A stretch of DNA of 64,000 nt from Intestinibaculum porci (GTDB taxonomy: Bacteria > Bacillota_I > Bacilli_A > Erysipelotrichales > Coprobacillaceae), in the NCBI RefSeq assembly GCF_003925875.1, contig NZ_AP019309.1, forward strand, positions 1,116,001 to 1,180,000, read 5' to 3'. Below are positions 8,186 through 25,377 of the stretch, in pieces. Below the pieces are notes generated by a model that had not been told where the DNA came from, searched no databases, and worked only from the letters and a program-made list of their open reading frames with translations. The translations under genes were made by a program, and so were the position numbers. How positions within the stretch are numbered: the first letter of the stretch is position 1; every line of letters starts with the position of its first letter.

Positions 8186-8221
8186 ACGAATAGAGTAGTT
8201 GAGAAGAAAAGAAGAGGAATT

Positions 8222-11200
8222 ATGAAAGAAATTTATGGACAAATGAAACGGTTATTGAGAAAAAATCTAGTAGCTTTCATCAGCGTTCTTATGATTGCGG
8301 CTAGTGTGAAAGTGAATAGTGTTCATGGGGAGACAAACACGGCAGACATTCATACCAGTTTGACACCATCTTTATATGATGCTTCTGGTAAGAAAGTCAC
8401 GAACATTAATAATATCGATGGTAATGGTATGAAGCTTGCTGTGAACTATTCTTTAGTTCAAGCGGAAAGCTCAAGCGAAAAAAGTTATATAAGTTTTGTG
8501 AGAGATCATTACAACATTGCCTCTGAAAAATCAATCGATATTTTATGGGGGGCAAAAACTAATTTTAGGATTGGTTCAGTAGATCCTGAAAATTATGATG
8601 GTCATTTGGATTATTCCTTAGAAATAACAAATGGCGCTTATGCAAAAACTATGGATCAATCTCATTGGTATTTACTCTATATTGATGCGTCAGGTCATGC
8701 GCATAAGCTAACAAAATCGTCAGATTATACAATTACAACAAATAGTAATGGTGCTATTTCAAAGATTGTTGTAAAAAAATTATCGAAAGCATCCGGATAT
8801 GGAAATGGGACTTATTATCTCGTCGAAGCAGGTACAAAAACATATGATCCTGATAGCGGAGAAGTGGTGAACGATCCAACCACAAATGTCAATATTCCTG
8901 ATGGAGAGAATGGCGCTACGGTTTCTATTCCTGTCGTTTACAGTTCTACCAATAGACTCTATACAACATTAACAGGTAAATTCAATACTAATCCAGCTTT
9001 TGATGAAACAGCGTTTACTAATATTTCAAAGGGTATTTATGGCACTGATATTGCTTCTTTATCACCAATTAAGGTTGATCTTTCAGGAGAAAATTTAAAT
9101 ACTGTATTAATGAATGATAATTTAAAGGCTGTCTATGATATGACCTTAACGATTGAAAATCAATCAGAAAATCCTAAATGGGATTTATTGTATTTTGATG
9201 AAAATGGCAAAAATCCTGCTGATATCACAAATGAATTAGGAACATCTTTAGCGGCATCAGTTGATAGTGATGGCTATTATAAAGTTCACTTTGTGACAGA
9301 ACATAAACAGCCAGGGTACTATGTTATCGTTGAAGAAGGGAAAAAAATAGAAGAAATGAATGCTTCTAATCCTATTATTGATGGGAAAAAGGATAGTGTT
9401 CAAGCATATAAAATGGCGGTTCATGATGGCTCAACCAATGAAGTCACAGGTTATATTAAAGCACAGTTTGATGGGACACCAAGGATTGATTTTGACCAAA
9501 TGAATAAAGCTAGCGCAGACTTAATTGATGGCAATATGGTTCAGACACAGGCTTTAGCTGTCGCATTTAGTCAGTGGGAAAATGATGATAGCTATAAGAA
9601 GTTAAATCAAAAAAATTATTCTCTCACGTTTGGTGCTTCCTATGCCATGGTTCCTATTAAAAATACGACGTGGAGATTACTCTATTATCCAGATAAAACT
9701 TTTACAAATGGTGTCGATATCACTGATCAAGCTAAAATCACAACTAACAATAATACTGTTTCTTATACGACAACTTATAAGAAGAATGGATATTATGTTT
9801 TAGTTGAAGTCGCTTCTAAGGAAAATACAGCCAAACCTGAATATGTAACAGATACTTCTATGTATTATGGTTATGAAGAAAGATTCTATGGTTCTAACTT
9901 GTTTAAAATCAAGAATTCTGATGGAAAGACAGAGAATGTAGCCTATTGTAATACTTATGATAATTTTGCACCGTTGTATAACGGCTTGGCTGTGCAGGGC
10001 TCAAATGATATTTATTTTAATTTATATCATCGCTATACAGATCCAATTGCCTATTGGCAAAGTTTGAGTGAAAAACAAAAATTTGGCATTAGAAGTCGAT
10101 TAGGTATCACAAATGATGATAATAAGGCTGCACTTACGATTTGTGATGAAGCTTCAAAAGCTATTTATTACGGTTACCATGACAGTAGTAATGGCGTAAA
10201 GGATGATCCAGCTGGTTTATTCCGTAGGCTGCCAAGATCAGGTCAAGCTTTAGATCGCAACGGAAATCTGGTATCGGTTACGAAAACGGATTATGAGAGA
10301 TGGATTACTCAGTTGGTTATTCATTATTTTACTGATGGTGTTGATGTTACACACAACAAATTTGCAAATGTTACCGATAATAATGGGCAAATAAGTGAGA
10401 TTGGTAAGATCGCACAAAAGATGGTTGACATGATCAAAAACAATTCTGGCCCTGCTCTTCCTAGTGGTAAGGCAGTGTATTTTTATAAATTTGATGGTGT
10501 ATATAAAATTTCTAATCCAACAGCTGATGAAAAAAACAATCCCGCTGCTTCTCAAAGGAAAGAAAAAGTAAGCTTGCCTTTTAGCGTTGGCAGTAAACCC
10601 TATGCAAATAGTCAAGATATGATTACAGCGCATTTTGAAAATTCAACAGAAAAGCTAGTTTATATTAGTAAAAAGAATATTGGTGGAGAAAATTTATCGG
10701 GGGCGAAGATCCAAATTGTAAATGACCAGCAGACAGCCGTTAAATATGGCACATATACGACCGATGGCTCTGATCATTTACTGAGCTTAGAGCCAGGTAT
10801 TTATACATTTCATGAGGTCAGTGCACCAGCTGGTTATCGCCTTGCTGAAGACTTTCAGTTTAAGGTTGAGCAAGATGGTCATATTACTGTGGTTGATGCT
10901 CATGGAAATATGGTAAGTGCAGATGACAATAAATTAACAGTTACTGATTTGTCTCACTATACTGTTAAGTTTAATAAGGTAGATGAACATGGAGAATTTG
11001 TGGCAGGGGCGAAACTAAAACTGACGAAAAATGATGATCCTTCGTTTAAACAAATCACCTGGATCACTGGGACAAGTCCACATATAATCGATGATCTGCC
11101 AAATGGTCAATATACACTCTCAGAAGTAGAAGCTCCTCATGGCTATGCAAAAGCGGAAAGTCAGACATTTATCCTTGATCAAAAGACGACGCAACCAATA

Positions 11201-12541
11201 ACCATACAAATGGTTGATCAAGAAGCCAAAAAGACTTTTACTGTTACAAAGACTTGGGGGACTGGGACGACGCCTAAAGCCATTAAAGTGAAACTGCTTA
11301 GGGATGGTTATCGGGTTCTTCCATCGGAAAGGCCAAATGATTATGAGGTTACCTTAGATAGTAATAATAATTGGACATATACATGGACAAAGCTTGATAA
11401 TAATGGAACGTATTCTGCTGAAGAAGCTGCTAATGATGATGGGACTGTTCCAGTGTTAGCAAAAACGATCAAAACTTTTGAGAAGATCACGCGTTTTGAT
11501 GATCTTAAAAAAGGAGATCAGCTGGTTTTTATTGCCACAAATCATCAAGATAAAGCTTTAGGGGTTCAAGAAGGTACAACAAACGCATCCACAGCGTCGC
11601 ACTTTAGATTTGTAGATACAGCATTCACTGCCAAAGCAAATGGTGAAAAGTATCTTGTTAATTTACCTAGCGATGATGCTCTTTGGACGGTTGATCGAGA
11701 TCCTGTTATTCGCAAGGAAGACAATAATGTCTCAATATTGCTTAAGTCAGCAGCTTATCCACAGCTGTACATGGCAAATTTCAATGGTAATGAGGCGGCC
11801 AATCTCGCAGATAAAGATCATAGTTATCCGATGTCTTATATTAATAGCAATCTTTACTATGGTGGCGAAACGAATAATAGGCGACAAAAGTATTGGTCAT
11901 GGAATATGAAATATAGTAATGAAAAACAGTTCTATTGTCAGGCTCCAAATGAGGCTAATACACTTACGTTTGATGTTTATAAATTAGGCATAGCGGATGT
12001 GCAATCGGATCATACTGATCGTTTTACACTTGAAAATCAGAAGAAGAACAAACAAAAGATAAAGATTCAAATCAAGAAATTTGATGTTGACCATACAAAT
12101 ACCTTATTACCTGGAGCAATATTCCAAATTTATAAGGCAGATCAGGATGGCAGCGTTGATGATATCAAAGCTAAGGGGGAAAAAGTAGGGGATGCCATTA
12201 GAACAAATCGTTATGGTATCGCTATGAGTGGTGAACTTGATCCCAATACAACTTATTACTTACTAGAAACAAAAGCACCGGCTGGGTATAAGTCTCTGGA
12301 TCATGTCATTAAGTTTAAAGCTATGGGCAATGATGATTCTTCAAAGATCATGATCGAAAGTGAAAAAGACAGGAATATTTATGTCACTGATGACACATTA
12401 TATATTGGTAATAAAAAAGAAGCGGTTTATGAATTACCAGATACCGGCGGTCAAGGTGTTTTACCGTACAGATTATTTGGTATTTTCAGTCTAATCGTCG
12501 CTATCTTCATGTATATGAAAAAGCGACGAATAGCACAATAA
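8222..12541 (+). CDS. Large LPXTG-anchored surface adhesin with thioester domain and Cna_B/SpaA repeats
   Basis: A 1439-residue cell-wall protein, probably a pilus-tip or stand-alone adhesin. ATG 8222 gives a signal peptide (basic MKRLLRKN, hydrophobic core, VHGE cleavage region) and follows AGAGGA; reading further upstream would put the promoter inside the gene. In order: three tandem repeats (about residues 40-540), each with a W-x-LLY motif and ending in GYYVIVE-like sequence; a thioester-domain candidate with C576 (AYCNTYD) and Q697 (ITQLVIHY), the pair that forms the internal Cys-Gln thioester in this family; then SpaA/Cna_B domains with E-box motifs HEVSAPAGY, SEVEAPHGY and LETKAPAGY, one carrying a long insertion. 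It ends in LPDTG at 1405, a hydrophobic helix and KKRR. No sortase gene is visible. Confidence 0.88.
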   Translation: MKEIYGQMKRLLRKNLVAFISVLMIAASVKVNSVHGETNTADIHTSLTPSLYDASGKKVTNINNIDGNGMKLAVNYSLVQAESSSEKSYISFVRDHYNIASEKSIDILWGAKTNFRIGSVDPENYDGHLDYSLEITNGAYAKTMDQSHWYLLYIDASGHAHKLTKSSDYTITTNSNGAISKIVVKKLSKASGYGNGTYYLVEAGTKTYDPDSGEVVNDPTTNVNIPDGENGATVSIPVVYSSTNRLYTTLTGKFNTNPAFDETAFTNISKGIYGTDIASLSPIKVDLSGENLNTVLMNDNLKAVYDMTLTIENQSENPKWDLLYFDENGKNPADITNELGTSLAASVDSDGYYKVHFVTEHKQPGYYVIVEEGKKIEEMNASNPIIDGKKDSVQAYKMAVHDGSTNEVTGYIKAQFDGTPRIDFDQMNKASADLIDGNMVQTQALAVAFSQWENDDSYKKLNQKNYSLTFGASYAMVPIKNTTWRLLYYPDKTFTNGVDITDQAKITTNNNTVSYTTTYKKNGYYVLVEVASKENTAKPEYVTDTSMYYGYEERFYGSNLFKIKNSDGKTENVAYCNTYDNFAPLYNGLAVQGSNDIYFNLYHRYTDPIAYWQSLSEKQKFGIRSRLGITNDDNKAALTICDEASKAIYYGYHDSSNGVKDDPAGLFRRLPRSGQALDRNGNLVSVTKTDYERWITQLVIHYFTDGVDVTHNKFANVTDNNGQISEIGKIAQKMVDMIKNNSGPALPSGKAVYFYKFDGVYKISNPTADEKNNPAASQRKEKVSLPFSVGSKPYANSQDMITAHFENSTEKLVYISKKNIGGENLSGAKIQIVNDQQTAVKYGTYTTDGSDHLLSLEPGIYTFHEVSAPAGYRLAEDFQFKVEQDGHITVVDAHGNMVSADDNKLTVTDLSHYTVKFNKVDEHGEFVAGAKLKLTKNDDPSFKQITWITGTSPHIIDDLPNGQYTLSEVEAPHGYAKAESQTFILDQKTTQPITIQMVDQEAKKTFTVTKTWGTGTTPKAIKVKLLRDGYRVLPSERPNDYEVTLDSNNNWTYTWTKLDNNGTYSAEEAANDDGTVPVLAKTIKTFEKITRFDDLKKGDQLVFIATNHQDKALGVQEGTTNASTASHFRFVDTAFTAKANGEKYLVNLPSDDALWTVDRDPVIRKEDNNVSILLKSAAYPQLYMANFNGNEAANLADKDHSYPMSYINSNLYYGGETNNRRQKYWSWNMKYSNEKQFYCQAPNEANTLTFDVYKLGIADVQSDHTDRFTLENQKKNKQKIKIQIKKFDVDHTNTLLPGAIFQIYKADQDGSVDDIKAKGEKVGDAIRTNRYGIAMSGELDPNTTYYLLETKAPAGYKSLDHVIKFKAMGNDDSSKIMIESEKDRNIYVTDDTLYIGNKKEAVYELPDTGGQGVLPYRLFGIFSLIVAIFMYMKKRRIAQ

Positions 12542-12545
12542 AGAT

Positions 12546-12580
12546 AAGGGCAGATCCTTTAAAGAGGAGGCTGCCCTTTA
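12546..12580 (+). terminator. Possible terminator after the adhesin gene
   Basis: AAGGGCAG and CTGCCCTT form an 8-bp stem; the 17-base loop can pair further (TCCT with AGGA). The T tail is weak (TTTA), so termination may be partial. Confidence 0.55.
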
Positions 12581-13054
12581 ATGCTATTCATGAAATGAAT
12601 AGGATCGAAAAAGAGAAACTATGAAATAAGGTGAATCTAATGAGCCAATAAATGCGGTAGGGATTATTTAGGTCAGGGGTCCTTGGCGGCACGAAGTGAT
12701 CAGGGAACTAAGAAAATGGTAAAAAGAATGATGGGAATCAAGGAGCACAAAAAAGTATATATGTCAAGAGCAAATTATGCGCTTTTGTGGACCAGTCCTG
12801 GTACTTTTTAAGGATATGACTTCGCTCTATACTAGACATGTAAATTGAAGTGATATGCGAAGGGAGATGTAAACAAATTTAGAAATAAAGAAAGGGTTAA
12901 TGATTGAGGGTTTAACAGTTATTTCATCCATACATTGCAGTTTAATAATAATAAAACCGTTAAGACTCAAGAATACTGATGATGGCTTGCTTTAACAAGA
13001 TCATGTGAGCAAGACTCAATAATGCATATCTTCAATTTATTAATATAAAAATTT
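12581..13054. other. Adhesin-pilin intergenic region with second copy of the 26-nt element
   Basis: No convincing gene. The element at 12761-12786 resembles 8114-8139, and TATACT at 12828-12833 lies 41 bases after it, so a promoter giving a leader of about 270 bases is likely. A loose inverted repeat (TTAACAGTTATT and AATAAAACCGTTAA) lies around 12911-12965. A 31-codon frame at 12716-12811 has no good ribosome site. Confidence 0.5.
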
Positions 13055-13081
13055 TATACTTGGTGATCTGGAGATCACCAA
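13055..13081 (+). promoter_or_regulatory. TATACT box and 5' stem-loop before the backbone pilin
   Basis: TATACT (13055-13060) touches a perfect hairpin at 13060-13081 (TTGGTGATC and GATCACCAA around TGGA). The ribosome site AGAGGAG follows at about 13091. The hairpin could protect the 5' end of a highly expressed pilin mRNA or be a dyad operator. No good -35 was found. Confidence 0.5.
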
Positions 13082-13108
13082 AAGGATTAAAGAGGAGAAA
13101 TTTAGATT

Positions 13109-14701
13109 ATGAGATTTTCAAGAAAAATTATGAGCTGCGTAGCAGCATCAACGATGGCTTTATCGATTGGTGGTGCCGCCACCGCTACAACATTAGCTGT
13201 GTCCAATTTATCAAAGGGTATTCATGTATTTGCGGCTTCAAATTATCAGGTTACAATTCACAATACCGCTAGTACAGAACATAACTTTGATATTTACCAG
13301 ATTTTTACCGGTACGACAGATGGTTCATCAAACAGTATTGGGGATATCCAATGGGGGACTGGTGTAAAAGATTCTTTTAAGACGAACAAGGCTGCAGATA
13401 TTGCAAATGAACTTAGCAATGGCAGTAAAAAAGCATTTGATATTGTTGATCAATTATCTGAAAACAAACAGACGGTCGTAATTGGAGCCGGAGAATCAAA
13501 AGATCTTTCATTAGCATCAGGATACTATTTAATTATCGATACCGCTAAGGGAAGTTCAAGTACCGATAAAGCTGTAAGTTATATGCTTAAGGTTTCAAAG
13601 AATACGGTTGTAACACCTAAATCAGATGTGCCAGCTTCTGAAAAGAAAGTCAAAGAAGATGATCATAAAGTTGATTACAACACTGATAGCAGATTACCTA
13701 ATGTAGATGTAGGAAAGCAGTATAATGATGTTGCTGACTACTCAATTGGTGAAAATGTTCCATTCGAATTACTTGGCAGCCTACCAAGCAATTATGACTC
13801 TTATCAGACATATTCTTATAAGTTCTACGATAAGATGTCTAATGGTCTTACATTCAATAACGATGCTAAAGTAAGTTATTCTAATGATAATGGGGCTAGC
13901 TGGACAACTATTGATAGTGCTCAGTACACAGTAACTAAAACTTCTGATCAGCAATTTGATGTGTCATTTAGTGATTTAAAGAAGGTTGCAGGCGTTACCG
14001 CTAACTCAAAAATCAAAGTCGAATTTACCGCTAAATTAAATAGTCAAGCGAAAATCGGTGCGAAAGAAGGCAACACAAACGAATCTTATATTGAATATTC
14101 AAATAACCCAGATCATTCCGGAACTGGTACAACAACACCTGATAAAGTTATTGTTTTCACTTATGAATTAGATACGACAAAAGTGGATAAAGACAATCCT
14201 CAGGTGAAATTGAAAAATGCTGAATTCAAATTAGCAGATAGCAGCAAGTCAAAATGGTTAAAGATTGTTAATGATGAAGTGACTTGGGTTGCTTCTAAAG
14301 ATGACGCTACAACATTAAAATCTGATGACAATGGTAAATTTGTAGTGAAAGGCTTAGATTCTGGTACTTATTACTTACAGGAAACAAAAGCGCCTGAAGG
14401 TTATAATCTTGATGAAACAATGCATGAGGTTACACTTAAGGCTGAAACAGTCAATAATCAGACGTGGGATGAAAACCCTTCATCAGCTATTACTTCATTA
14501 ACTTTAAATGGAAAAGAAAATACTGGAGATACAGCAACTGGTATAGTCAATGCGACAATCGACAACGCGAAGGGACCAAAACTTCCAGAAACTGGTGGTA
14601 TGGGTACTACGATGCTGTATGCTGCCGGTGGTGTCTTAGTGGCAGCGGCGACCGTTTATGTTGTTACTTCTAAGAAGAAACAAGCTGAAGCTGAAAAGTA
14701 A
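13109..14701 (+). CDS. Backbone pilin, isopeptide-forming, LPETG-anchored
   Basis: A 530-residue secreted major-pilin candidate. A signal peptide (MRFSRKIMSCVAASTMAL...) is followed by an N-terminal pilin domain with KNTVVTPK; K171 is in the position of the pilin-motif lysine used for sortase-made polymerisation. A central isopeptide-forming domain follows, then a SpaA/Cna_B domain (DTTKVDKDNPQVKLKNAEFK) whose E-box is QETKAPEGY. The C-terminus has LPETGG, a hydrophobic helix and a KKKQ tail. It lies 8 bases before the next pilin-like gene, so the two form one unit. No class C sortase follows, unlike standard pilus operons. Confidence 0.88.
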   Translation: MRFSRKIMSCVAASTMALSIGGAATATTLAVSNLSKGIHVFAASNYQVTIHNTASTEHNFDIYQIFTGTTDGSSNSIGDIQWGTGVKDSFKTNKAADIANELSNGSKKAFDIVDQLSENKQTVVIGAGESKDLSLASGYYLIIDTAKGSSSTDKAVSYMLKVSKNTVVTPKSDVPASEKKVKEDDHKVDYNTDSRLPNVDVGKQYNDVADYSIGENVPFELLGSLPSNYDSYQTYSYKFYDKMSNGLTFNNDAKVSYSNDNGASWTTIDSAQYTVTKTSDQQFDVSFSDLKKVAGVTANSKIKVEFTAKLNSQAKIGAKEGNTNESYIEYSNNPDHSGTGTTTPDKVIVFTYELDTTKVDKDNPQVKLKNAEFKLADSSKSKWLKIVNDEVTWVASKDDATTLKSDDNGKFVVKGLDSGTYYLQETKAPEGYNLDETMHEVTLKAETVNNQTWDENPSSAITSLTLNGKENTGDTATGIVNATIDNAKGPKLPETGGMGTTMLYAAGGVLVAAATVYVVTSKKKQAEAEK

Positions 14702-14708
14702 TTCATAT

Positions 14709-15728
14709 ATGAAAAAAGTTTTGAGTACGATCTCCCTGATCGTTTCACTGCTGCTGATGATGAGTGTAAGAGGTGCTTATGCAAGCACTTCTTCCTCGCT
14801 CACGCTGACAAATACCAGAAAGGGAATGCATATTCATGTCTATCAGATTGCTGAAGTGAGAGGAGATCAATATACTTATACAGAAGCATTTGCTGATGCA
14901 ACGAATACAAGCGTCGATCTTAATCACTTAAAAACAAGCGAAGAATTAAGCGCGGCAGCCGATACCCTTAAAGGATATGCCGCAAAAGTATCGGGCATAG
15001 ATGTTATTGCTTCTGCTAATCAGACAAATATTTCTCATTTAAAAAATGGCATATATCTGATCTTAATAGATAATTATCAAGATGGCTATACAACTTATAG
15101 TTACCTTCCTTATATTATTCAGATCCCCAATGTAACTCAGGTTGAATTGTCAAAATATACGAAAACGACAACATCAAATAAAGTATATCAATATGATCTT
15201 ACAAAATATTGGTCAGGTGGATCTTCTTATCCGGAGACGGTTAAAGTTGATTTGTATAATGGTTCAACATTCGAAAAAACATTAACTTTAAAAAAATCCA
15301 GCAACTACTCTTTATCGTGGACAAGCACGACACAAAAAAATTATGCGATCGTTGAACATGCTATAAAAGGGTATACGTCAAGCGTGAAAATAACAAATAA
15401 TGGTGATACCACGCATATTTCCTTAATCAATACCGTTAATTCTGAGATGACTACTTATCATGCTCAGGCGGCGACGCCTCAGGCCAACAGTACGAGTCAG
15501 ACAATGAGTGGAAGTCAGAAAAATCCTTCTAGGACAATGACTTCAAGTTCAACCCCTTCATATGAATCTAATAAGACATCCACCCATACTAAGAAAACAA
15601 ATACGCGTCCAACGGCTTCTCATCATGCTGTAAAAACTGGTGATACGACAAATGTGACAAAGTATATTGCGCTATTTGGTTTTGCCGGCCTTATGCTGAT
15701 AATTATTGGAAAATATTTAAAGAACTAG
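14709..15728 (+). CDS. Minor/base pilin-like surface protein with VKTGD sorting signal
   Basis: The start at ATG 14709 gives a clean signal peptide (MKKVLSTISLIVSLLLMM, cleavage near AYA); the ribosome site is weak and lies in the end of the pilin gene, suggesting coupled translation. The 339-residue protein has a pilin-like N-terminal domain (GMHIHVYQIAEV resembles the FDIYQIF region of the gene before), a Cna_B domain (LTKYWSGGSSYPETVKVDLY, then VEHAIKGY), a Ser/Thr-rich stalk (about 255-305), and VKTGD at residue 308 before a hydrophobic helix. The missing Leu-Pro suggests a different sortase class from the LPXTG neighbours. Role as base or minor pilin is inferred. Confidence 0.8.
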   Translation: MKKVLSTISLIVSLLLMMSVRGAYASTSSSLTLTNTRKGMHIHVYQIAEVRGDQYTYTEAFADATNTSVDLNHLKTSEELSAAADTLKGYAAKVSGIDVIASANQTNISHLKNGIYLILIDNYQDGYTTYSYLPYIIQIPNVTQVELSKYTKTTTSNKVYQYDLTKYWSGGSSYPETVKVDLYNGSTFEKTLTLKKSSNYSLSWTSTTQKNYAIVEHAIKGYTSSVKITNNGDTTHISLINTVNSEMTTYHAQAATPQANSTSQTMSGSQKNPSRTMTSSSTPSYESNKTSTHTKKTNTRPTASHHAVKTGDTTNVTKYIALFGFAGLMLIIIGKYLKN

Positions 15729-15918: not shown

Positions 15919-16021
15919 GTATTTATCATTTGCAATAGTGGAATTGAATTGATATTAAGGGATGTAAATGATCATTTTGATGACAGAAAATATCATATTA
16001 TAGAAGGGAAAGGTGAATTTC

Positions 16022-16738
16022 ATGCGCAAATTAAAGCTGGCTATTTGCGAAGATGAAGAAAAAGAATATCAGAATTTTCTGACGCTATTAGAAAAATCGG
16101 GTGTTGAAAACGAAGTGGATTACTTTTGTGATGGCAGTGATCTTTTAAAGCAGTTCTATCAGGGAAAATATGATCTGATTTTTATGGATATTTACATGAA
16201 TCAAATGAATGGCGTTGAGACGGTCTCGAAAATTCGTGAAATTGATGAGCATGTTCCCATTGCTTTTACGACGACAAGTAAGGACCATTTTGCGGACGGC
16301 TTTCGCTTACGTGTGAATCGCTATTTGGAGAAACCGTTACAACAAAGCGATTTTAATGAGACACTGCAAATGGCGCAGGAAGCTCTGAAACTCAGACCGC
16401 ATATTACTGTCAAAAGTGAAGGAAAAGATGTGGAATTGATGGAGTCGGATATTGCTTTTGTAGAACAGTCACGACACCATCTCTTTATCAATATGACGGG
16501 CAGTAAAAAAGTGAAAACATTAGGGAAATTAGATGACTTTGAAAAGCATCTTCCGCATCCACCGTTTTATCGCTGTCATAAAAGTTATTTAGTTAATCTC
16601 ACCCAGGTGGCCTCATTGGATAAAGAAAATCGAATGTTTGTCATGAAAGAAGGCGACTATGTGTATATTCGCAGAGCATCTATTTATGAAGCTGCGCGAG
16701 TTCTCAAACAATTCTTATTTTCTAACGTAAGAGATTAG
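16022..16738 (+). CDS. LytTR-family response regulator (AgrA/VirR type)
   Basis: A 238-residue two-component regulator. The receiver domain has the acidic pair E10-D11 (ICEDEEKE), D56 as phosphoacceptor (LIFMDIYM), T88/T89 and K108 (YLEKPL). The C-terminal LytTR DNA-binding domain (about 130-235) carries FYRCHKSYLVNL, the signature of this fold. ATG 16022 is preferred to GTG 16013 because AAAGG lies 8 bases before the ATG. Such regulators often control surface proteins, pili or peptide signalling. The sensor kinase starts 11 bases downstream, and the pilus genes just upstream are likely targets by position. Confidence 0.93.
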   Translation: MRKLKLAICEDEEKEYQNFLTLLEKSGVENEVDYFCDGSDLLKQFYQGKYDLIFMDIYMNQMNGVETVSKIREIDEHVPIAFTTTSKDHFADGFRLRVNRYLEKPLQQSDFNETLQMAQEALKLRPHITVKSEGKDVELMESDIAFVEQSRHHLFINMTGSKKVKTLGKLDDFEKHLPHPPFYRCHKSYLVNLTQVASLDKENRMFVMKEGDYVYIRRASIYEAARVLKQFLFSNVRD

Positions 16739-16749
16739 GGGGGACACTT

Positions 16750-18585
16750 TTGAAGACATTGAAAGAATTACATCCGAATCGGATCTTTTTGGCGATTGCT
16801 GTGATCTTTATCGTGGTAGGAACTCTGATTGGGCAAATGTATGATCGCAGTGCGAAAAAACATATGAATAGTGTCCGCATCTATCATCGTGTTAACTATT
16901 CTTATTCACAGAAACAGGGACGTATGTCTTTACCGCAAACATTGACGCAGTTAAAACCGCGGACAAAAGTGCATATTGATTTTGATGTCAGAGGAAAGCC
17001 AGGAGAATTGCTTTATGTCAAGACGGTTTATGCGCCGGTCAAAGTATATGCTGACGGGAAACTTATTTATGAATATGGGGATCCAAAGACGCGCCCTTCG
17101 TTTATGAAAGATCCCGCCTGCAGTGTGAATACTGTCTCCCTGCCTTTTGATGGCGAACATAAGACAATACATATCCATATGACATACTGGTCTTTAAAAG
17201 GTCGTTCGCATCTCACTTTAAAACCTTGCGCGGTTGGCAATCAGGGTGAAGTGATGAGATACATTAGTCAGAATTACAGCTTTTCTCGTGGCATATCAAT
17301 CTTTTTTCTGATTACAGGAGTGATTTTAGTATTTTTTGCTTTCTTTTTCTTAAATGATATTGCTCCTGTTAAACGTATCTTTTATTCTGGATTACTTATT
17401 GCCCTGGCTGGTTTGTGGCAATATTGTATGAATGACCTTTCTATTTATATTAGTCAAAGCGTTAATGGGCTCTACTTGTTATCATTCTCGAGTATGTTTA
17501 TGCTGATGATACCAATGACAAAATTTGTTTCTGTACAGCTGGGCAATCGTAAAGATAAACTTCTTCCTTTTGTGACTATCTGTAATGAAGTTTCGTTCAT
17601 TGCGGCGATGGTCTTGCAGTTTGCAGGTTTCGTTGATTTTGCTACAAGTTTTTATTTCTTTATCATTGAAGAGGCTATGTCTCTTGTTTTGGTTGCTGTG
17701 ATTATGGGTTATCATACGATGCGCAATCATCACAATGATGACCGGACTTTCTTTATGTCTACTTTAACGTTAAGTGTTTTTATGATCTTATCCATCATTC
17801 GTCGACTGACAGGAAGTACTTCTGATACGATGTTTGTGCTGATGGGATTTTATCTCTTTGTAGTCATTTTGATTATCTTTTTACAGTCTCTATGGAAGAA
17901 TATGATGATTCAGAAAGAAAAGGCTATGGCCCTTGAAAACGAGATGTCTCAGTTAGAGAACGCGATTGAAGCGCAAAAGCATCATAACGAGCTGCTCATT
18001 GCCCATGCCGAAGAGGTACGAGAACAGCGCCATGACTTACGCCATCATTTAGTGGCATTAGCACAAATGGTCGATCAAAAGAATTTTCTGGGGATCAAAA
18101 AGTATGTTGAAGATATGAAAGCTTCGATGCCTATGAATAATGCGGTGACATATTGTGATAATCAGATTATCAATGCATTATTATCCTATTATGTAGAAAA
18201 GGGTCGTAAAAGTCATATTGAAATGGATATCTTAACGCAGATTCCGGCGCATAATCCACATATTTCCGATAATAACTTATCTGTTATTGTCGGAAATATG
18301 ATTGAAAATGCGATCGAAGCCTGCAATAAACAGGAATCTGGGGAAAAGAAGATTATTTTGCGTGCCAAAGTACAAGGAAATATGCTGATTTTTACAATGG
18401 ATAATACGTTCAATGGTGAAGTGCGAAAACGTGATGGTCATTTTGTTTCCAGCAAAGTGGCGGATGGATCGCGCATTGGCATAGGGCTGAGTTCAGTGGA
18501 ATCGATTGCACATAAATATCATGGAGAAGCGGAATTCCATGGTGAAGGGCATATTTTTAAATCATCTGTTTATTTAGAAATGTAG
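16750..18585 (+). CDS. Membrane sensor histidine kinase, GHKL type with 7TMR-DISM-like sensor
   Basis: A 611-residue kinase paired with the LytTR regulator. It starts with TTG 16750, 7 bases after AGGGGGG. Layout: one N-terminal membrane helix (about 12-28), an extracellular beta-rich domain (about 30-175), seven or so membrane helices (about 178-385), a coiled coil, the H-box REQRHDLRHHL with H428 as likely phospho-acceptor, and a HATPase domain with NMIENAIEAC (N-box) and GIGLSSV. The extracellular-plus-7TM layout resembles 7TMR-DISM receptors that sense soluble ligands. The ligand cannot be told from sequence. Confidence 0.9.
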   Translation: MKTLKELHPNRIFLAIAVIFIVVGTLIGQMYDRSAKKHMNSVRIYHRVNYSYSQKQGRMSLPQTLTQLKPRTKVHIDFDVRGKPGELLYVKTVYAPVKVYADGKLIYEYGDPKTRPSFMKDPACSVNTVSLPFDGEHKTIHIHMTYWSLKGRSHLTLKPCAVGNQGEVMRYISQNYSFSRGISIFFLITGVILVFFAFFFLNDIAPVKRIFYSGLLIALAGLWQYCMNDLSIYISQSVNGLYLLSFSSMFMLMIPMTKFVSVQLGNRKDKLLPFVTICNEVSFIAAMVLQFAGFVDFATSFYFFIIEEAMSLVLVAVIMGYHTMRNHHNDDRTFFMSTLTLSVFMILSIIRRLTGSTSDTMFVLMGFYLFVVILIIFLQSLWKNMMIQKEKAMALENEMSQLENAIEAQKHHNELLIAHAEEVREQRHDLRHHLVALAQMVDQKNFLGIKKYVEDMKASMPMNNAVTYCDNQIINALLSYYVEKGRKSHIEMDILTQIPAHNPHISDNNLSVIVGNMIENAIEACNKQESGEKKIILRAKVQGNMLIFTMDNTFNGEVRKRDGHFVSSKVADGSRIGIGLSSVESIAHKYHGEAEFHGEGHIFKSSVYLEM

Positions 18586-18700: not shown

Positions 18701-18726
18701 AAAAAAAGGAGCAGGGCGGCTCCTTT
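18701..18726 (-). terminator. Terminator of the degenerate-GGDEF membrane gene
   Basis: On the minus strand AAAGGAGC and GCTCCTTT pair around CGCCCT and are followed by T residues. It starts on the gene's stop codon. Confidence 0.88.
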
Positions 18727-19726
18727 AAGAAGAAATGTGGGTTTCAAGTTCATTGGCTGAGGAGATCTTGAAGGATTCCTGAGTAAAAATCAGCTTTGAA
18801 GAGATTTGCTTAAGCTGCTTTGGATTCACTGCTTTGGCGCTGATAAAAATAAAGTGATCGTTTATGATATAAAACAGACCGCGATGAGGAAGCATGTGAT
18901 AAAAGTTGAGGGCAGCTATTTTCAGCTCTTCATTAAAGATATCCTGACCATATGTATTGAGAATGTTTTCTTTATTAGTGAGGGTATAAAGTGTTACATT
19001 TTTACCTGAATAATTATGATGACGCTGCAAGTAGTTGTCGTTATAGAAGTTTGTAACGGGATCCTTATCATTTTTTAAATCTTCCATATGCTTGATTTGT
19101 ATAAACATAGCGAGGGAGCCGAAAGCCCAGACTACCGGATATTGTAAAAATATTGCCTGGATTGCCATCCCGATAATGATCGGTAAAGCAATGAGAAGCT
19201 TGGCTTTAAAATCAATATTGGCGAGCCTTTGAGAAAGATCCATATAAAAGACGATCACCCATATGATATAGACGAGAAATAATGAAATAAAAAGGTCAAA
19301 GCCATTTAAACGGGAATAAACAAGGGCGTTGTTTATTTCAAATAAAAATGGCGTAAAGATGTTTGCTAATAGTAATACGACCCCGGTAATTGTCGTGACA
19401 CACGGCAGGGCAAGAGAGTCAAAGTCATATTTATGATCATAATATATTGATAAGATTATTGTCCAGGTCATGCCGATGACGAGATCTCCGAAATAAAGGA
19501 ATGTGTTGACTAAAAGCAGGAAGTGAACGTTGAAAGAGCCAAGAAAGAAAAAGCCCGTATTTGAAAATGGAGCAATGAGACAGCATAGGAGATCAGTCCC
19601 TAAAAAGAGATAAAATAACTGTCGCTCATGGCTGTTTCTGGTGAGCGTGCGCACTCGAAAAAAGAGTGAAATCAAGATCATGATCGCGAGCAAATTGGCA
19701 ATGATATTTATTGTAAGGGCCTTCAT
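18725..19726 (-). CDS. Membrane protein with degenerate GGDEF-like C-terminal domain
   Basis: A 333-residue protein with about seven hydrophobic segments in residues 1-212, followed by a soluble domain. KDPVTNFYNDNYL (221-233) resembles the DPLTGLYNRRYL start of GGDEF domains, and GQDIFNEELKIAA (260-272) resembles the next helix, but the signature position reads INDHF (288-292) rather than GGDEF. The domain is also shortened. It is therefore unlikely to make cyclic di-GMP; binding of a nucleotide or a structural role is possible. AGGAGG precedes the ATG. The gene is a lone unit, transcribed against the two-component genes. Confidence 0.7.
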   Translation of the reverse strand: MKALTINIIANLLAIMILISLFFRVRTLTRNSHERQLFYLFLGTDLLCCLIAPFSNTGFFFLGSFNVHFLLLVNTFLYFGDLVIGMTWTIILSIYYDHKYDFDSLALPCVTTITGVVLLLANIFTPFLFEINNALVYSRLNGFDLFISLFLVYIIWVIVFYMDLSQRLANIDFKAKLLIALPIIIGMAIQAIFLQYPVVWAFGSLAMFIQIKHMEDLKNDKDPVTNFYNDNYLQRHHNYSGKNVTLYTLTNKENILNTYGQDIFNEELKIAALNFYHMLPHRGLFYIINDHFIFISAKAVNPKQLKQISSKLIFTQESFKISSANELETHISS

Positions 19727-20021: not shown

Positions 20022-21239
20022 ATGAGAAGGAAACATTTAATGGTGACGCTCGTTTGTGCGTGCATGGTCGGGAGTATGTCTTTAACCGGCGTGCAGGCAG
20101 CGCAAAAGGGGGATAAAGTATCCTTTATGCAGGATACGAAAAAAGCGAATGGGGTGTACAAAGTCGGCAGCACCTATCGCTATTTTGATAATGAAGGAAA
20201 AATCTATCGCGGGAAAGCGAAGCTGGTTCATGCCGATAAGGGTATTTATTACGTGAAAAAAGATGGCGCGACGTTCCATGGCTGGAACGTTCTCGGTAAT
20301 AAGCTCTATAATTTTTCTGGGAAAGGTAATCGCGCCTTAACGAATACCACGTCACGTAATGTCAAATTACTCGCTAGTGGGGTAGCGGTTAATAATGAAG
20401 AATCACAGATCTTTGTGAAGGTCTTGAATATTCTCAAGCGTAAAGGGCTGCTAGAAGCAAGCGCTAGCGCTAAGCGACAGGCTTTATGGAATTATTTAAC
20501 CTCACATGCTAACTTTAGTTACTTTATGAAATATCCGAATTTAAGCACTAAATCCTGGGCAAAGGATTATGCGTTATGGATGTTAGATCATCATAAAGGC
20601 AACTGTTATGGCTTTGCATGTACGTTTTCGGCCATGTGCTATGTCATTGGTTATAATCCGGAAATTGTCTGCGGCCGCGTCCATGGATCACGTGACCATG
20701 CGCGTGATGGGTTTACTCGTCATGCCTGTTTAAAGATCAATGGGAAATGGTACGATCCGGAAGCGACGTTTGCCGGCTGGATGCGTGGGGTTTACGGCGC
20801 AGGCAGCTATCGGGCAGCTTTTATTGGTCGGAAAACTTATAGTTATGCTAAACAAAATGGTAATAAGCTCAATATTCAGATGGCTAAGAAAGGGCAAACT
20901 TATTACTACACTAAAGGCGAAACGATTTACGGCTTTGATACTGGCAATAAGCCAATAACAGGTTATTACGTCATTAATAATAAGATCTATTACTTTAATA
21001 AGAACCATACGACAACCAAAGAAGCAGCGAAAAAGCTGCAGGCGCTCTTTGCTTATAAAAAGCCATTTGCACAGGTAAAAGCATTACTTGGGGAAGCAAA
21101 AGAAAGTAAAGATATGGGCCCTGGCTGCAGCGGTATCGCCGGGACAGAAATGCTTTATACGTATGATCATATTAAGGTAGCGACCGTTATTCCATATGAT
21201 GGCAGTGAAGAAATCTTTTTATCAGTGAGCGAAAAATAA
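20022..21239 (+). CDS. Secreted transglutaminase-like protein with wall-binding-like repeats and C-terminal BLIP/SmpA-like domain
   Basis: A 405-residue exported protein; ATG 20022 follows AAGGGGAG and opens a clear signal peptide cleaved near VQAAQ. Residues 40-105 contain short Tyr/Gly repeats (GVYKVGSTYRYFDNEGK, then IYYVKKDG) like wall- or glucan-binding repeats. The core has a papain-like triad: C195 in GNCYGFAC, H234 in TRHACLKI and D245 in KWYDPE. A second repeat-like stretch lies at 290-330. The last 60 residues (KKPFAQVKALLGEAK, later C369, then LYTYDHIKVAT) resemble the small protein ending this operon. Protease, amidase or cross-linking activity at the cell surface is possible; substrate unknown. 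Confidence 0.8.
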   Translation: MRRKHLMVTLVCACMVGSMSLTGVQAAQKGDKVSFMQDTKKANGVYKVGSTYRYFDNEGKIYRGKAKLVHADKGIYYVKKDGATFHGWNVLGNKLYNFSGKGNRALTNTTSRNVKLLASGVAVNNEESQIFVKVLNILKRKGLLEASASAKRQALWNYLTSHANFSYFMKYPNLSTKSWAKDYALWMLDHHKGNCYGFACTFSAMCYVIGYNPEIVCGRVHGSRDHARDGFTRHACLKINGKWYDPEATFAGWMRGVYGAGSYRAAFIGRKTYSYAKQNGNKLNIQMAKKGQTYYYTKGETIYGFDTGNKPITGYYVINNKIYYFNKNHTTTKEAAKKLQALFAYKKPFAQVKALLGEAKESKDMGPGCSGIAGTEMLYTYDHIKVATVIPYDGSEEIFLSVSEK

Positions 21240-21254
21240 ACGAGGAGGAAATTT

Positions 21255-22139
21255 ATGAAATCTTTTACATTAGGCGCATTAGCGGTGATGATGACGTTAT
21301 CGATGTCACCAGTTTATGCGAAAGCCAAAAAGGTCAACGGCTTTCAGAAAGTTGGCAACAGTTATTACTATTATAAAAAGAAGAAGAAAGTAACGGGCTT
21401 ACAGAAGATCAGCGGCCAGACTTACTATTTTGCGAAAAACGGCAAGATGGCAAGCGGCATGCAGACAATCGGCAAGAAAGTTTATTACTTCAAGAAGGCT
21501 AAAAATGGCAAAGCACCCCTGCAGAAGGGAAAGATCTTCTATTCAGTAGGGAATAAAAAAGGCAATGCGGCGATTTTAGAGACCTTGGTCAAATCATCTT
21601 ACAAAAATACTAATAGTCGCGAGAAAAACTTAAAGATTGCTTATGACTATCTGATGAAGAAAATGTCCTATGGCGGCTGGAGCTTTGAACCAAGCTATAA
21701 AAATGGCTGGTACAATAATGTGGCTGATGAATTAGTCAATGACAATAATTATCAGGGCAAATGCTGGGACTATGCGGCGATGACGACTTTAGCAGCCAAA
21801 GCGGTTGGTTATAATCGTAATGGGTATAGTGTTTATGCGATCAATGGTAAACAAAACTTAGAACAGACGGATTTGACAACTCATGCTTATACAATTGTTC
21901 ATGACAATAAAGCCAATAAAGACTATATCTTAGATGGTGTCTTTGATGATCGCGGCGGTCATTATAATTCTCAGACCGCGCAGTATTTCATGCAGGAATA
22001 TGTCAATGTCTCTGATAACTTCTATCGTTTAGCGCGTGAGACAAATGTTCCTGTTGATGTTAATGGGCATTATGTTTTACCAACGGAAAATACCGATGTG
22101 AACAGTTTCGTTTATCAGGAACTTGGACGTCATAAGTAG
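21255..22139 (+). CDS. Secreted transglutaminase-like protein with N-terminal wall-binding-like repeats
   Basis: A 294-residue exported protein with signal peptide cleaved near VYAKA. Three short repeats follow (GFQKVGNSYYYY, GLQKISGQTYYF, GMQTIGKKVYYF), resembling choline/glucan-binding repeats. The transglutaminase-like core has C170 (GKCWDYAAM), H210 (THAYTIVH) and D227 (YILDGVFDD) in the expected order. It begins 15 bases after the first transglutaminase gene with GAGGAGG before it. The two proteins share architecture but not close sequence, so a recent duplication is unlikely. Confidence 0.8.
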   Translation: MKSFTLGALAVMMTLSMSPVYAKAKKVNGFQKVGNSYYYYKKKKKVTGLQKISGQTYYFAKNGKMASGMQTIGKKVYYFKKAKNGKAPLQKGKIFYSVGNKKGNAAILETLVKSSYKNTNSREKNLKIAYDYLMKKMSYGGWSFEPSYKNGWYNNVADELVNDNNYQGKCWDYAAMTTLAAKAVGYNRNGYSVYAINGKQNLEQTDLTTHAYTIVHDNKANKDYILDGVFDDRGGHYNSQTAQYFMQEYVNVSDNFYRLARETNVPVDVNGHYVLPTENTDVNSFVYQELGRHK

Positions 22140-22147
22140 GTGGCTCC

Positions 22148-23548
22148 ATGGTTTTCAGTTCAGCACCGTTCCTCTTTATATTTTTGCCTGTCCTCTTTAT
22201 CCTTTATACGATCATTCCGCATCTTAAGGTAAAAAATGCTTTACTTATTATTGCCAGTCTGATCTTCTATGGATATGGAGAACCGGTCTTTGTCTTTGTA
22301 ATGATTGGGTCGGTCTTTGTCAATTATGTTTTAGCGCGTTTATTAGTAGCCTATAATGATCATCGTAAGCTCTTTGTGAGCTTAGCGGTAATCTTTGACT
22401 TAGCGATGATTGGGGTCTTCAAATATACTGGGTTCATTATTGAAAATATCAATGCCGTAGCCCATTTAGGAATCCCTAATCCCCACATTACTTTGCCAAT
22501 TGGTATCTCATTTTTTACCTTCCAGATCTTATCTTATGTGATTGATGTGGATCGTGATCATTCTTTATTATCGAAAAACTATTTTGATGTCTTATTATAT
22601 ATCTCGTTTTTCCCGCAGCTGATTGCTGGACCAATCGTTAAGTATCACGATGTCGTGATGTATATTAATAATCGTCATCAGACCTTATCGGAAGTATCGC
22701 AAGGGATCCGTCGTTTTATCGTTGGTTTATCAAAGAAGTTATTTTTAGCGAATGCGATGGGGGAAGTAGCGACGGCAATGTTTGGCTTAAAATATGGCGA
22801 TATGTCATTTGCGACCGCTTGGGCTGGGGCTCTCTGTTATACCTTACAAATCTATTTTGATTTCAGTGGGTATTCGGATATGGCGATCGGTTTAGGCCAT
22901 ATGTTTGGTTTTACGTTCTTAGAAAACTTTAATCATCCTTATATTTCTACGAGTATTCGTGAGTTCTGGCGTCGCTGGCATATTTCCTTATCCACCTGGT
23001 TTAAGGAATATCTGTATATTCCTTTAGGCGGTAACCGTAAAGGAAAAGGACGGACATATATCAATAAACTGATCGTCTTCTTCTGTACTGGCTTATGGCA
23101 TGGCGCTGCCTGGACATATGTCATTTGGGGGATGATTCATGGTTTAGCGATCATGGCTGAAGATGCAAGCGGCCTCACGAAGTTTACCAAGAAACATAAA
23201 TGGTTAGGCTGGCTGTATACGATGCTTATCGTTATTGTGGCCTTTGTCTTATTTAATTCCACGTCAATGACCCAAGCCGGCGAAATGATTCGTCATATGT
23301 TTGTCTATAGCCGCGGGAATGTCAATGCTTATAATGCGTTAGTCAGTGTCTTAACACCATGGCATATGGCCTTATTTGTCATTGCGATCATTGCTAGTAC
23401 GCCGCTTATCGATATCGTTAAACCACAGTTAGAAAAGAACGTCGCTTTCAATGCGGTAAGTTATGTCGCCGCTTATGGCTTATTTATTTTATGCATTTTA
23501 AATATCGCCAATGCTTCATTCAATCCATTTATTTATTTCCAGTTCTAG
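22148..23548 (+). CDS. AlgI-type MBOAT membrane O-acyltransferase
   Basis: A 466-residue polytopic protein of the membrane-bound O-acyltransferase family, which moves acyl (often acetyl) groups to exported polysaccharides or teichoic acids. Family motifs are FFPQLIAGPIV, YFDFSGYSDMAIG, EFWRRWHISLSTWF, YLYIPLGGNR and GLWHGAAWTYVIWG; the histidine in LWHG (about H318) is the conserved catalytic one. It starts 8 bases after the second transglutaminase gene and is followed by a DHHW/AlgX-like protein, the usual partner in AlgI-AlgJ/X style acetylation systems. Poly-alginate itself is unlikely; a capsule, wall or exopolysaccharide target is inferred. Confidence 0.92.
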   Translation: MVFSSAPFLFIFLPVLFILYTIIPHLKVKNALLIIASLIFYGYGEPVFVFVMIGSVFVNYVLARLLVAYNDHRKLFVSLAVIFDLAMIGVFKYTGFIIENINAVAHLGIPNPHITLPIGISFFTFQILSYVIDVDRDHSLLSKNYFDVLLYISFFPQLIAGPIVKYHDVVMYINNRHQTLSEVSQGIRRFIVGLSKKLFLANAMGEVATAMFGLKYGDMSFATAWAGALCYTLQIYFDFSGYSDMAIGLGHMFGFTFLENFNHPYISTSIREFWRRWHISLSTWFKEYLYIPLGGNRKGKGRTYINKLIVFFCTGLWHGAAWTYVIWGMIHGLAIMAEDASGLTKFTKKHKWLGWLYTMLIVIVAFVLFNSTSMTQAGEMIRHMFVYSRGNVNAYNALVSVLTPWHMALFVIAIIASTPLIDIVKPQLEKNVAFNAVSYVAAYGLFILCILNIANASFNPFIYFQF

Positions 23549-23556
23549 GAGGGCTT

Positions 23557-25011
23557 ATGAAGAAGATCTATAAAGTATTATTTATTACAGCCTTTTTTAC
23601 CTTAGCGATCACGCCTTTTGCCCTCATGCCTTTCTTTGGCTTTCAGGCCGCAGAAAGTGATGCGAGTGATGTCAGCATGCCGCTCATGTTTGAAGATCAT
23701 CACTTTAATAGTGATTACTTTACTCAGTTAGGGGACTTCTTTTCTAAGAAGTTTGCCTTCCGTCAGCAGTTTGTGACGGCTAATGCAACCCTTATGAGTA
23801 AGCTAACCCATACCAGTGCCCAGGCAAATGTGATTGAAGGGAAAGAGGATTATCTTTTCTATGGCACAACCTTAGATGATTATGAAGGCAAGAAAACGAT
23901 GAATGATCATCAGATTGCCAACGCCGTCTATAACTTAAAGCTGATGCAGGAGACGTTAAAAGACAAGGATGATGTAAACTTTACATTTACCATTGCCCCC
24001 AATAAGAATTCTCTCTATGGGCAGTATATGCCTAGCGGCTATAAGATTCAGCCAGGCAGTCGTAATGCGACGCGCTTAAAGCAAGCATTAAAACATTCCA
24101 ATGTGCATTATGTGGATCTCTATTCTATTTTTCATAAGCGTAAAGAAGTGCTTTATCAGAAAACGGATTCCCATTGGAACAACAAGGGCGCAGCCTTGGT
24201 ACAAAACAAGTTATTAACAGCGATGCATAAGCAGCATACGAACTTTGCCCGGCTTAAGTACGATATTCGTCATGATATGCAGGGGGACCTTTATAAGATG
24301 CTTTATCCCGCTTTTAAAGGGCGCGAAGCGCAAGTCTATTATAAACGGCCTTTCACTTATAAACGTATTGATGACAAAGATCGCAGTGCCACTACTGATG
24401 ATATTTATCAGACCAAAAATAAAAGCAAAAAAGGATCTTTGTTAATGTTTAGAGATTCCTTTGGTAATACCTTAACGCCATTTATGGCGGAAGAGTATCA
24501 TAATGGTTTATTCTTAAAGGGATTCCGTTATGAATTAACGCAGGCTTACAGTGATGATGTCAATGCGGATGATGTGGTCATTGAATTGGTTGAACGGAAT
24601 CTGGTGAACTTATCGACGTATACGCCGCTTGCGCCAGGTAAAGATTACGAAGGTGCTTTTAAAACAGCGAAGATTAACGATCATGTTTCAACCTTCTCGG
24701 CGAAAACCGAAGCGAACTATACGATGGATGGTTATCGTAAGTTAAGCGGACATATGAATCCGAAGTATCTTAAAAAGGATACAACGACTTATGTCCATGT
24801 GTATAGCGGGGATGAATCGTACATTTATAAAACCTATCATGCCAGTGAAGATTTAAAAGGAAAATATGCGGATGATGGTTATGGATATTACATTGATGAG
24901 CTAGCACTTTCACCAGGAAAGAAGTATAATGTATCTGTCATCTATCAAAATGGCAAAAACTATCAGGAAACACAGGCGCTGGGTCACTTTACCAGTGCGA
25001 AGGGAGAGTAA
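23557..25011 (+). CDS. AlgX/AlgJ-like (DHHW family) extracytoplasmic SGNH protein
   Basis: The start at ATG 23557 follows AGGAGGG and opens one N-terminal membrane helix (about 5-25), so the 484-residue protein is anchored or secreted. TDSHWNNKGA (D204, H206) is the DxHW motif of AlgX/AlgJ proteins and S301 in FRDSFGN is the likely nucleophile, together the SGNH-type triad. Such proteins pass acetyl groups from the MBOAT partner to a polysaccharide. The C-terminal 130 residues look like a separate beta-rich domain. Start lies 8 bases after the MBOAT gene. Confidence 0.85.
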   Translation: MKKIYKVLFITAFFTLAITPFALMPFFGFQAAESDASDVSMPLMFEDHHFNSDYFTQLGDFFSKKFAFRQQFVTANATLMSKLTHTSAQANVIEGKEDYLFYGTTLDDYEGKKTMNDHQIANAVYNLKLMQETLKDKDDVNFTFTIAPNKNSLYGQYMPSGYKIQPGSRNATRLKQALKHSNVHYVDLYSIFHKRKEVLYQKTDSHWNNKGAALVQNKLLTAMHKQHTNFARLKYDIRHDMQGDLYKMLYPAFKGREAQVYYKRPFTYKRIDDKDRSATTDDIYQTKNKSKKGSLLMFRDSFGNTLTPFMAEEYHNGLFLKGFRYELTQAYSDDVNADDVVIELVERNLVNLSTYTPLAPGKDYEGAFKTAKINDHVSTFSAKTEANYTMDGYRKLSGHMNPKYLKKDTTTYVHVYSGDESYIYKTYHASEDLKGKYADDGYGYYIDELALSPGKKYNVSVIYQNGKNYQETQALGHFTSAKGE

Positions 25012-25014
25012 TTT

Positions 25015-25350
25015 ATGAAAGCATTATTAAAGAAATGTTTAGCAGCGGTGATGGCTTTAACCGTTGCCTCAACGACAGCTGTCGCCACTTATGAAAATGA
25101 AGGAGCTGTTGTTGTCGAAGCCAAAAAGTTATCTGCCAAGCAGCAAAAGAAGATCGCTAAAAAGTATGTTGGCAAACCAATTAATGCCTTAGTACGTAAG
25201 ATCGGTCGTTATAAACGCGGCCAGGTGTCCGCTTCATGTAACTCAGCTGGTTACTATGAAGGTCTTTATCAGTGGAAAGGCTTCAAAGTAAAAACGCGTT
25301 CAAAATCTAAGAGCAAGAGCTCAGTACAGATTATTAAAGCTGTGAAATAA
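25015..25350 (+). CDS. Small secreted protein, BLIP/SmpA-like
   Basis: A 111-residue exported protein (signal peptide to about VEAKK) that begins 3 bases after the DHHW gene. The mature part, with GKPINALVRKIG, a single Cys (SCNSAGYY), LYQWKGFKVKT and a Lys/Ser-rich strand, follows the same spacing as the last 60 residues of the first transglutaminase protein of this operon (KPFAQVKALLG, Cys, LYTYDHIKVAT). This pattern is common in small secreted Firmicute proteins with a BLIP/SmpA-type fold, which often bind other proteins. No enzyme motif is present. An adaptor or inhibitor for the operon's surface enzymes is speculative. Confidence 0.75.
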   Translation: MKALLKKCLAAVMALTVASTTAVATYENEGAVVVEAKKLSAKQQKKIAKKYVGKPINALVRKIGRYKRGQVSASCNSAGYYEGLYQWKGFKVKTRSKSKSKSSVQIIKAVK

Positions 25351-25354
25351 GATC

Positions 25355-25377
25355 AAGGTGGAGTCATTCCACCTTTT
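25355..25377 (+). terminator. Terminator of the transglutaminase-MBOAT operon
   Basis: AAGGTGGA and TCCACCTT form an 8-bp stem around GTCAT, followed by TT and a C. It separates the envelope operon from the helicase gene. Confidence 0.82.

What the first reader, a model, noticed from the sequence alone, without database searches (positions are those of the whole stretch)
20022..25350. Five-gene envelope operon joining two transglutaminase-like proteins to an AlgI/AlgX-type acylation pair
Genes are 3-15 bases apart and end at one terminator, so they are almost surely cotranscribed. MBOAT plus DHHW/AlgX-like protein is a known core for O-acylating exported polysaccharides. Two wall-binding-repeat transglutaminase-like enzymes and a small secreted protein are not part of the acylation systems I know. 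Together they suggest a surface system that both acylates a polymer and cleaves or cross-links protein or peptide at the same site.
Basis: partly seen in the sequence, partly recalled or inferred. Interest (0 to 1): 0.75.

Follow-up and report, generated by a model that had tools for sequence, protein, structure and literature searches.

The report
Wall-acylation operon with transglutaminase-like partners
This gut bacterium carries a five-gene set that probably decorates its cell-wall polymers with acyl groups, and a survey of relatives shows that the transglutaminase-like enzymes and the small cysteine-bearing secreted protein in it are regular, apparently undescribed partners of this branch of the acylation machinery.

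Summary
The five genes are real, tightly packed and end at a terminator. MBOAT and DHHW/AlgX-like proteins form a standard MBOAT-SGNH acylation core: the MBOAT ends in the acyl-shuttle motif FXYXXF (FIYFQF) and keeps its His; the SGNH protein keeps Asp/His/Ser. Both transglutaminase-like (TG) proteins keep Cys-His-Asp. In 25 genomes chosen by DHHW similarity, 25/25 MBOATs paired with this DHHW branch have a TG alongside, against 1/27 other MBOAT-DHHW pairs. Gene 5 is not a passenger: it is a ~70-residue domain with one invariant Cys ('SM'), also fused to the first TG's C-terminus, in the slot where relatives encode a secreted protein ending in a Cys-bearing tail (often CDGSGHGYY, operon-exclusive in 15/15 genomes). 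TG and Cys-tail co-vary. The TG-SM module also sits beside a dlt-like MBOAT system. Best reading: an MBOAT-SGNH envelope acylation system with dedicated wall-bound TG and Cys-head partners. TG chemistry (peptidase, cross-linker or acyl transfer) and the polymer are unknown. No description was found in the open-access literature searched.

The parts
20022..21239 (+). TG1: secreted transglutaminase-like protein, 405 aa; TG domain aa 107-277 with Cys195/His234/Asp245; repeat-like stretches on both sides; C-terminal SM domain
   Evidence: Pfam Transglut_core 29.6 bits; triad conserved in 101-102 of 103 domains; AlphaFold TG domain at high confidence, best solved neighbour S. pyogenes TglA Z 11.5, rmsd 3.3, 128 aligned
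21012..21230 (+). SM domain of TG1 (aa 331-403), same domain as gene 5
   Evidence: shared profile with gene 5 and relatives
21255..22139 (+). TG2: secreted protein with choline-binding-type repeats and TG domain, Cys170/His210/Asp227
   Evidence: Pfam Choline_bind_3 44.8 bits, Transglut_core 23.0 bits; triad
22148..23548 (+). MBOAT acyltransferase, AlgI/PatA-like, His318
   Evidence: Pfam MBOAT 127 bits; His318 invariant in 78/78
23528..23545 (+). C-terminal acyl-shuttle motif FIYFQF (FXYXXF), Tyr463
   Evidence: motif in 78/78 relatives, Tyr463 invariant; function shown for PatA in PMC12148441
23557..25011 (+). DHHW/AlgX-like SGNH O-acyltransferase, predicted catalytic Asp204/His206/Ser301
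   Evidence: Pfam ALGX 52.6, DHHW 31.4 bits; the three residues invariant in 79/79
25015..25350 (+). Small secreted Cys-head protein (SM domain), conserved Cys75
   Evidence: invariant Cys in 30/30 rows; AlphaFold pLDDT 87, weak resemblance to BLIP/BamE-type domains Z 5-6
25355..25375 (+). intrinsic terminator-like stem-loop ending the unit

Best explanation
The operon is an MBOAT-SGNH envelope acylation system of a distinct branch, with two kinds of dedicated extracellular partners. Inferred steps: (1) the MBOAT takes an acyl group, probably acetyl from acetyl-CoA, onto Tyr463 of its C-terminal FIYFQF; (2) the motif hands it to Ser301 of the DHHW/AlgX-like protein; (3) this protein acylates a wall or surface polymer; (4) TG1 and TG2, held at the wall by repeat domains, act through a Cys thioester on the same polymer, on its attached peptide or protein, or on the Cys-head protein; (5) the SM/Cys-head protein serves as a docking, acceptor or relay piece for this machinery. 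Shown here by sequence: the catalytic residues, the branch-specific association of TG and Cys-head with this MBOAT-DHHW pair, their co-variation, and TG-SM fusion. Inferred from characterised relatives: steps 1-3. Inferred with no direct test: steps 4-5.
For: Pfam assignments. FXYXXF in 78/78 MBOATs and invariant His318, Tyr463, Asp204, His206, Ser301, matching the PatA/PatB acetyl-Tyr relay in PMC12148441; DHHW-family PatB1 O-acetylates secondary cell wall polysaccharide (PMC9487903). TG near 25/25 MBOATs of this branch versus 1/27 other MBOAT-DHHW pairs in the same genomes (Fisher p 1.1e-13). In 56 loci with context: TG 50, Cys-tail 45, both 44, neither 5 (p 6.5e-4). CDGSGHG tail in the operon and nowhere else in 15/15 genomes that have it; strong SM domains (over 75 bits) in the operon only in the Clostridia sampled. 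In the window's family (36 sampled genomes besides the window's own) the P0004-type DHHW occurs only in G014, and a strong SM also only there among the 24 scanned. SM-TG also beside a dlt-like MBOAT-SGNH-adenylation operon in two genomes. TG proteins in relatives carry other surface modules (ChW, SLH, Fn3), so a wall location is kept whatever the anchor.
Against: No experiment. No polymer-synthesis genes next to the operon, so the acceptor is unknown. Six of 56 loci have neither or only one partner as expected of optional parts, and five have neither, so the core works without them. The window genome has four more SM proteins with TG or TG-like regions away from any MBOAT, so TG-SM also has a life of its own. 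Loci are related, so the p-values overstate independence.
Confidence: 0.6

Rival explanations
1. The TGs are independent wall peptidases or protein cross-linkers that share the operon only because both sets are expressed under the same envelope conditions; there is no shared substrate.
For: TG-SM proteins occur away from MBOAT in the window genome and in G001. Nearest folds include LapG protease and pseudomurein endoisopeptidases.
Against: Branch specificity (25/25 versus 1/27), co-variation of TG with the post-DHHW Cys-tail, TG-SM fusion, and a second link of TG-SM to a dlt-like MBOAT.
Confidence: 0.22
2. The TG domains are acyltransferases of the arylamine N-acetyltransferase / amide-synthase type that take the exported acyl group onto their Cys and pass it to an amine.
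For: Profile matches to GdmF amide synthase and weak ones to NATs; 9 of 72 TG domains match PF00797; link to acyl-exporting operons.
Against: Those families share the TG superfamily fold, so the matches do not separate functions; top structural neighbours are not NATs.
Confidence: 0.12
3. Chance gene order: unrelated neighbours in a compact genome.
For: None beyond the lack of a known link.
Against: The survey statistics above.
Confidence: 0.02

Closest known systems
PatA1/PatB1 of Bacillus cereus group (MBOAT plus DHHW-family SGNH, O-acetylates secondary cell wall polysaccharide; PMC9487903)
   Same: Gram-positive, MBOAT plus SGNH of the DHHW/AlgX kind, adjacent genes, FXYXXF and catalytic triad
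   Different: Here Block V reads DSHW, and Pfam ALGX scores above DHHW; added TGs and Cys-head protein
PatA/PatB and AlgI/AlgJ/AlgX acetylation systems (PMC12148441)
   Same: C-terminal FXYXXF shuttle on the MBOAT, separate SGNH partner
   Different: Those cited systems are described without TG or Cys-head partners (recall for AlgF as an accessory protein)
CcsH/CcsI of the clostridial cellulose operon (PMC7710045)
   Same: MBOAT/DHHW pair in Clostridia
   Different: There the pair sits with cellulose synthase genes; here with TGs and no synthase; the paper does not mention transglutaminase
Dlt D-alanylation system (DltB/DltD/DltX)
   Same: best NCBIfam and PDB sequence match of the MBOAT is DltB, below the equivalog cut-off
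   Different: no DltA/DltC in the operon; shuttle motif is on the MBOAT itself, not on a DltX microprotein
Bacterial transglutaminase-like enzymes: S. pyogenes TglA (9crn), LapG, PeiP/PeiW
   Same: fold and Cys-His-Asp arrangement
   Different: low identity (11-16%), different domain context; activity not inferred

Membership tests
MBOAT-SGNH envelope acyltransferase systems | MBOAT domain with invariant His | tested here: met
   Pfam 127 bits; His318 in 78/78
MBOAT-SGNH envelope acyltransferase systems | FXYXXF acyl-shuttle motif on the MBOAT C-terminus | tested here: met
   FIYFQF; motif in 78/78
MBOAT-SGNH envelope acyltransferase systems | adjacent extracytoplasmic SGNH protein with Asp-x-His and Ser | tested here: met
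   D204, H206, S301 invariant in 79/79; ALGX 52.6 bits. The assignment of Ser301 as nucleophile is by family knowledge
MBOAT-SGNH envelope acyltransferase systems | acyl transfer to an exported polymer | not testable with these tools
   needs biochemistry
DHHW family (PatB1-like) | Pfam DHHW match above cut-off | tested here: met
   31.4 against 25 bits, but ALGX scores higher
DHHW family (PatB1-like) | Block V DHHW motif as in PatB1 (PMC9487903) | tested here: not met
   reads DSHW, Ser205 invariant in 79/79; so filed as ALGX/DHHW-like, not as a PatB1 orthologue
Dlt system | DltB equivalog score | tested here: not met
   162 bits against cut-off 375
Transglutaminase-like superfamily | Transglut_core fold with Cys-His-Asp triad | tested here: met
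True transglutaminase (protein cross-linking) | glutamine-lysine cross-linking activity | not testable with these tools
   fold shared with peptidases and acyltransferases
BLIP/SmpA(BamE)-like domain (SM domain) | fold match | tested here: inconclusive
   Z 5.3-6.4 to SAV1118, S. mutans BLIP-like protein and BamE; no Foldseek match at E 0.001

The most novel reading that the evidence does not exclude
The Cys-head proteins (SM domain or CDGSGHG-type tail on a signal-peptide or lipoprotein stalk) are thiol acyl carriers or acceptors, and the wall-bound TGs are the matching Cys acyl-transfer enzymes, so the Tyr-to-Ser relay of MBOAT-SGNH systems is extended by an extracellular thioester relay across the thick wall.
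Probability: 0.08. Interest if true: 0.88.

Novelty: new variant of a known kind. Interest (0 to 1): 0.6.

Why it matters
[quoted passage not shown] A branch common in gut Lachnospiraceae appears to have both, with a tail motif so conserved and so exclusive to the operon that it must have a specific role. This gives two concrete, testable candidates for new parts of envelope acylation in abundant gut bacteria, and a possible function for a set of wall-bound transglutaminase-like proteins.

Tried and rejected
Gene 5 as a random small ORF: rejected, its domain is conserved with an invariant Cys. Weak Pfam/NCBIfam hits of gene 5 (Iml2-TPR, cyanobactin RiPP) lie below cut-offs and were rejected. 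PDB sequence search with the SM profile gave only chance hits; Foldseek gave nothing at E 0.001; the aligner's BLIP/BamE-like rows (Z 5-6) are suggestive only. Erysipelotrichia-wide co-occurrence could not be tested because only one other sampled genome of the family has the pair. NAT-like Pfam hits to some TG domains were not taken as evidence of acyl transfer, since the families share a fold. I looked for other Cys-tail lipoproteins behind dlt-like MBOATs; the ~166-aa genes there are not SM-like, but two family relatives carry an SM-like lipoprotein behind an MBOAT-SGNH pair (L186, L187; weak, E about 2e-5). Literature: no paper found holding MBOAT with DHHW and transglutaminase, and none on the combination among the others searched; the library holds open-licence papers only. 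No literature on TglA of S. pyogenes was found.

Full report
Observation. Pfam confirms two Transglut_core proteins, an MBOAT and an ALGX/DHHW protein; the fifth protein matches nothing above cut-off. Gene 2 carries clear choline-binding-type repeats; gene 1 only weak ones.

Acylation core. The MBOAT ends in FIYFQF, which fits the FXYXXF acyl-shuttle motif. PMC12148441 shows that PatA auto-acetylates the Tyr of this motif and that PatB uses the acetyl-Tyr as donor. In 78 of 78 relatives the motif is present, and His318 and Tyr463 are invariant. In the SGNH protein Asp204, His206 and Ser301 are invariant in 79 of 79. Block V reads DSHW rather than DHHW, and ALGX outscores DHHW, so it is not a PatB1 orthologue, though PatB1 (DHHW family, SCWP O-acetylation; PMC9487903) is the nearest functional precedent in Gram-positives. 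The MBOAT falls far below the DltB equivalog cut-off. The window genome has two further MBOATs, neither with a TG beside it.

TG proteins. The Cys-His-Asp triad (TG1 C195/H234/D245; TG2 C170/H210/D227) is kept in 101-102 of 103 domains collected. An AlphaFold model of TG1 has a confident TG domain whose best solved neighbours are S. pyogenes TglA (Z 11.5, rmsd 3.3, 128 aligned), LapG (Z 10.4), and pseudomurein endoisopeptidases (Z about 9), with NATs and the GdmF amide synthase near Z 8. The fold therefore does not decide between hydrolysis, cross-linking and acyl transfer.

Conservation of the gene set. A scan of 84,980 species genomes with a DHHW alignment gave 166 relatives, of which the best 80 loci were kept, mostly Lachnospiraceae and other Clostridia. 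The selection did not use TG. In 56 loci with enough sequence on both sides, 50 have a TG on the same strand within 9 kb and 45 have a Cys-bearing protein right after DHHW; 44 have both and 5 neither (Fisher p 6.5e-4, related loci not corrected for). The usual order is TG(s)-MBOAT-DHHW-Cys-tail protein. As a control, all MBOATs of 25 of these genomes were fetched: 25 of 25 MBOATs whose DHHW partner belongs to this branch (over 500 bits) have a TG among the nearest genes, against 1 of 27 MBOATs with another DHHW-like partner, the single case being next door to a branch operon (p 1.1e-13). So the link is specific to this branch, not to MBOAT-DHHW pairs at large.

The small protein. Gene 5 and the C-terminus of TG1 are the same ~70-residue domain, here called SM, with one invariant Cys. 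In relatives the slot after DHHW holds a secreted protein or lipoprotein, often with an Ala/Pro-rich stalk, ending either in SM (10) or in other short Cys-bearing tails, most often DCDGSGHGYYxITYSDGS with the Cys 23 residues from the end (34 cases). The CDGSGHG pattern was searched in 20 related genomes: 15 have one genuine copy each, always in this operon; the extra pattern matches encode stop or Arg at the Ser position. SM domains over 75 bits lie only in the operon in those genomes. In the window's own family, the only other sampled genome with this DHHW (G014) is also the only other one with a strong SM. The SM model is confident (pLDDT 87) but has only weak structural neighbours, of BLIP/BamE type.

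Module outside this operon. The window genome has four more SM proteins: a tandem pair of repeat-TG-SM proteins, and two larger proteins with an SGNH-like N-terminus, repeats, a TG-like region in which I cannot recognise the catalytic residues by eye, and SM. Two genomes carry SM and TG, or TG, directly upstream of a different MBOAT-SGNH pair that is followed by an adenylation enzyme, i.e. a dlt-like system (L162, L158). TG-SM is thus linked to envelope acylation at least twice, and also occurs alone.

Mechanism. Most likely: acyl-CoA to MBOAT Tyr463, to SGNH Ser301, to a surface polymer (inferred from PatA/PatB; about 0.85). TG and Cys-head as functional partners of this process: about 0.7. 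What the TG does chemically is open: peptide or amide hydrolysis, cross-linking, or acyl transfer; I weight hydrolysis/cross-linking over acyl transfer on fold neighbours alone. The polymer is unknown; no glycan-synthesis gene adjoins the operon in the window.

Novelty. The core is known. The TG and Cys-head partnership was not found in the searched literature (open-licence papers only), so this is a new variant of a known kind. Limits: related genomes inflate the statistics, many loci come from metagenome assemblies, and nothing has been tested at the bench.

Noticed in passing
window 8048-15728: Sortase-pilus-type genes about 5 kb upstream: a 1497-aa SpaA/Cna_B protein and a 530-aa pilin-backbone protein.
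   Followed up: partly
window 16013-18585: LytTR response regulator and GHKL sensor kinase pair upstream of the operon, separated from it by a minus-strand gene.
   Followed up: partly
window 18725-19726, minus strand: 333-aa predicted membrane protein with no Pfam match at E 0.001, next to the operon's 5' side.
   Followed up: no
L181 (G000:C1:2384000-2402000) and L182 (G000:C1:2439000-2457000): Proteins of the same genome that seem to join an SGNH-like domain, wall-binding repeats, a degenerate TG-like region and an SM domain in one chain.
   Followed up: partly
L186, L187: In two family relatives an SM-like lipoprotein with a conserved Cys follows a different MBOAT-SGNH pair without TG (weak profile match).
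   Followed up: partly
L158, L162: TG and SM genes next to a dlt-like MBOAT-SGNH-adenylation operon.
   Followed up: partly
L034:4471-5412, L027:11414-12400 and similar: The CDGSGHG tail is fused to very different N-terminal parts (G5/DUF348, SH3, coil), so the 25-residue tail is the conserved part.
   Followed up: partly
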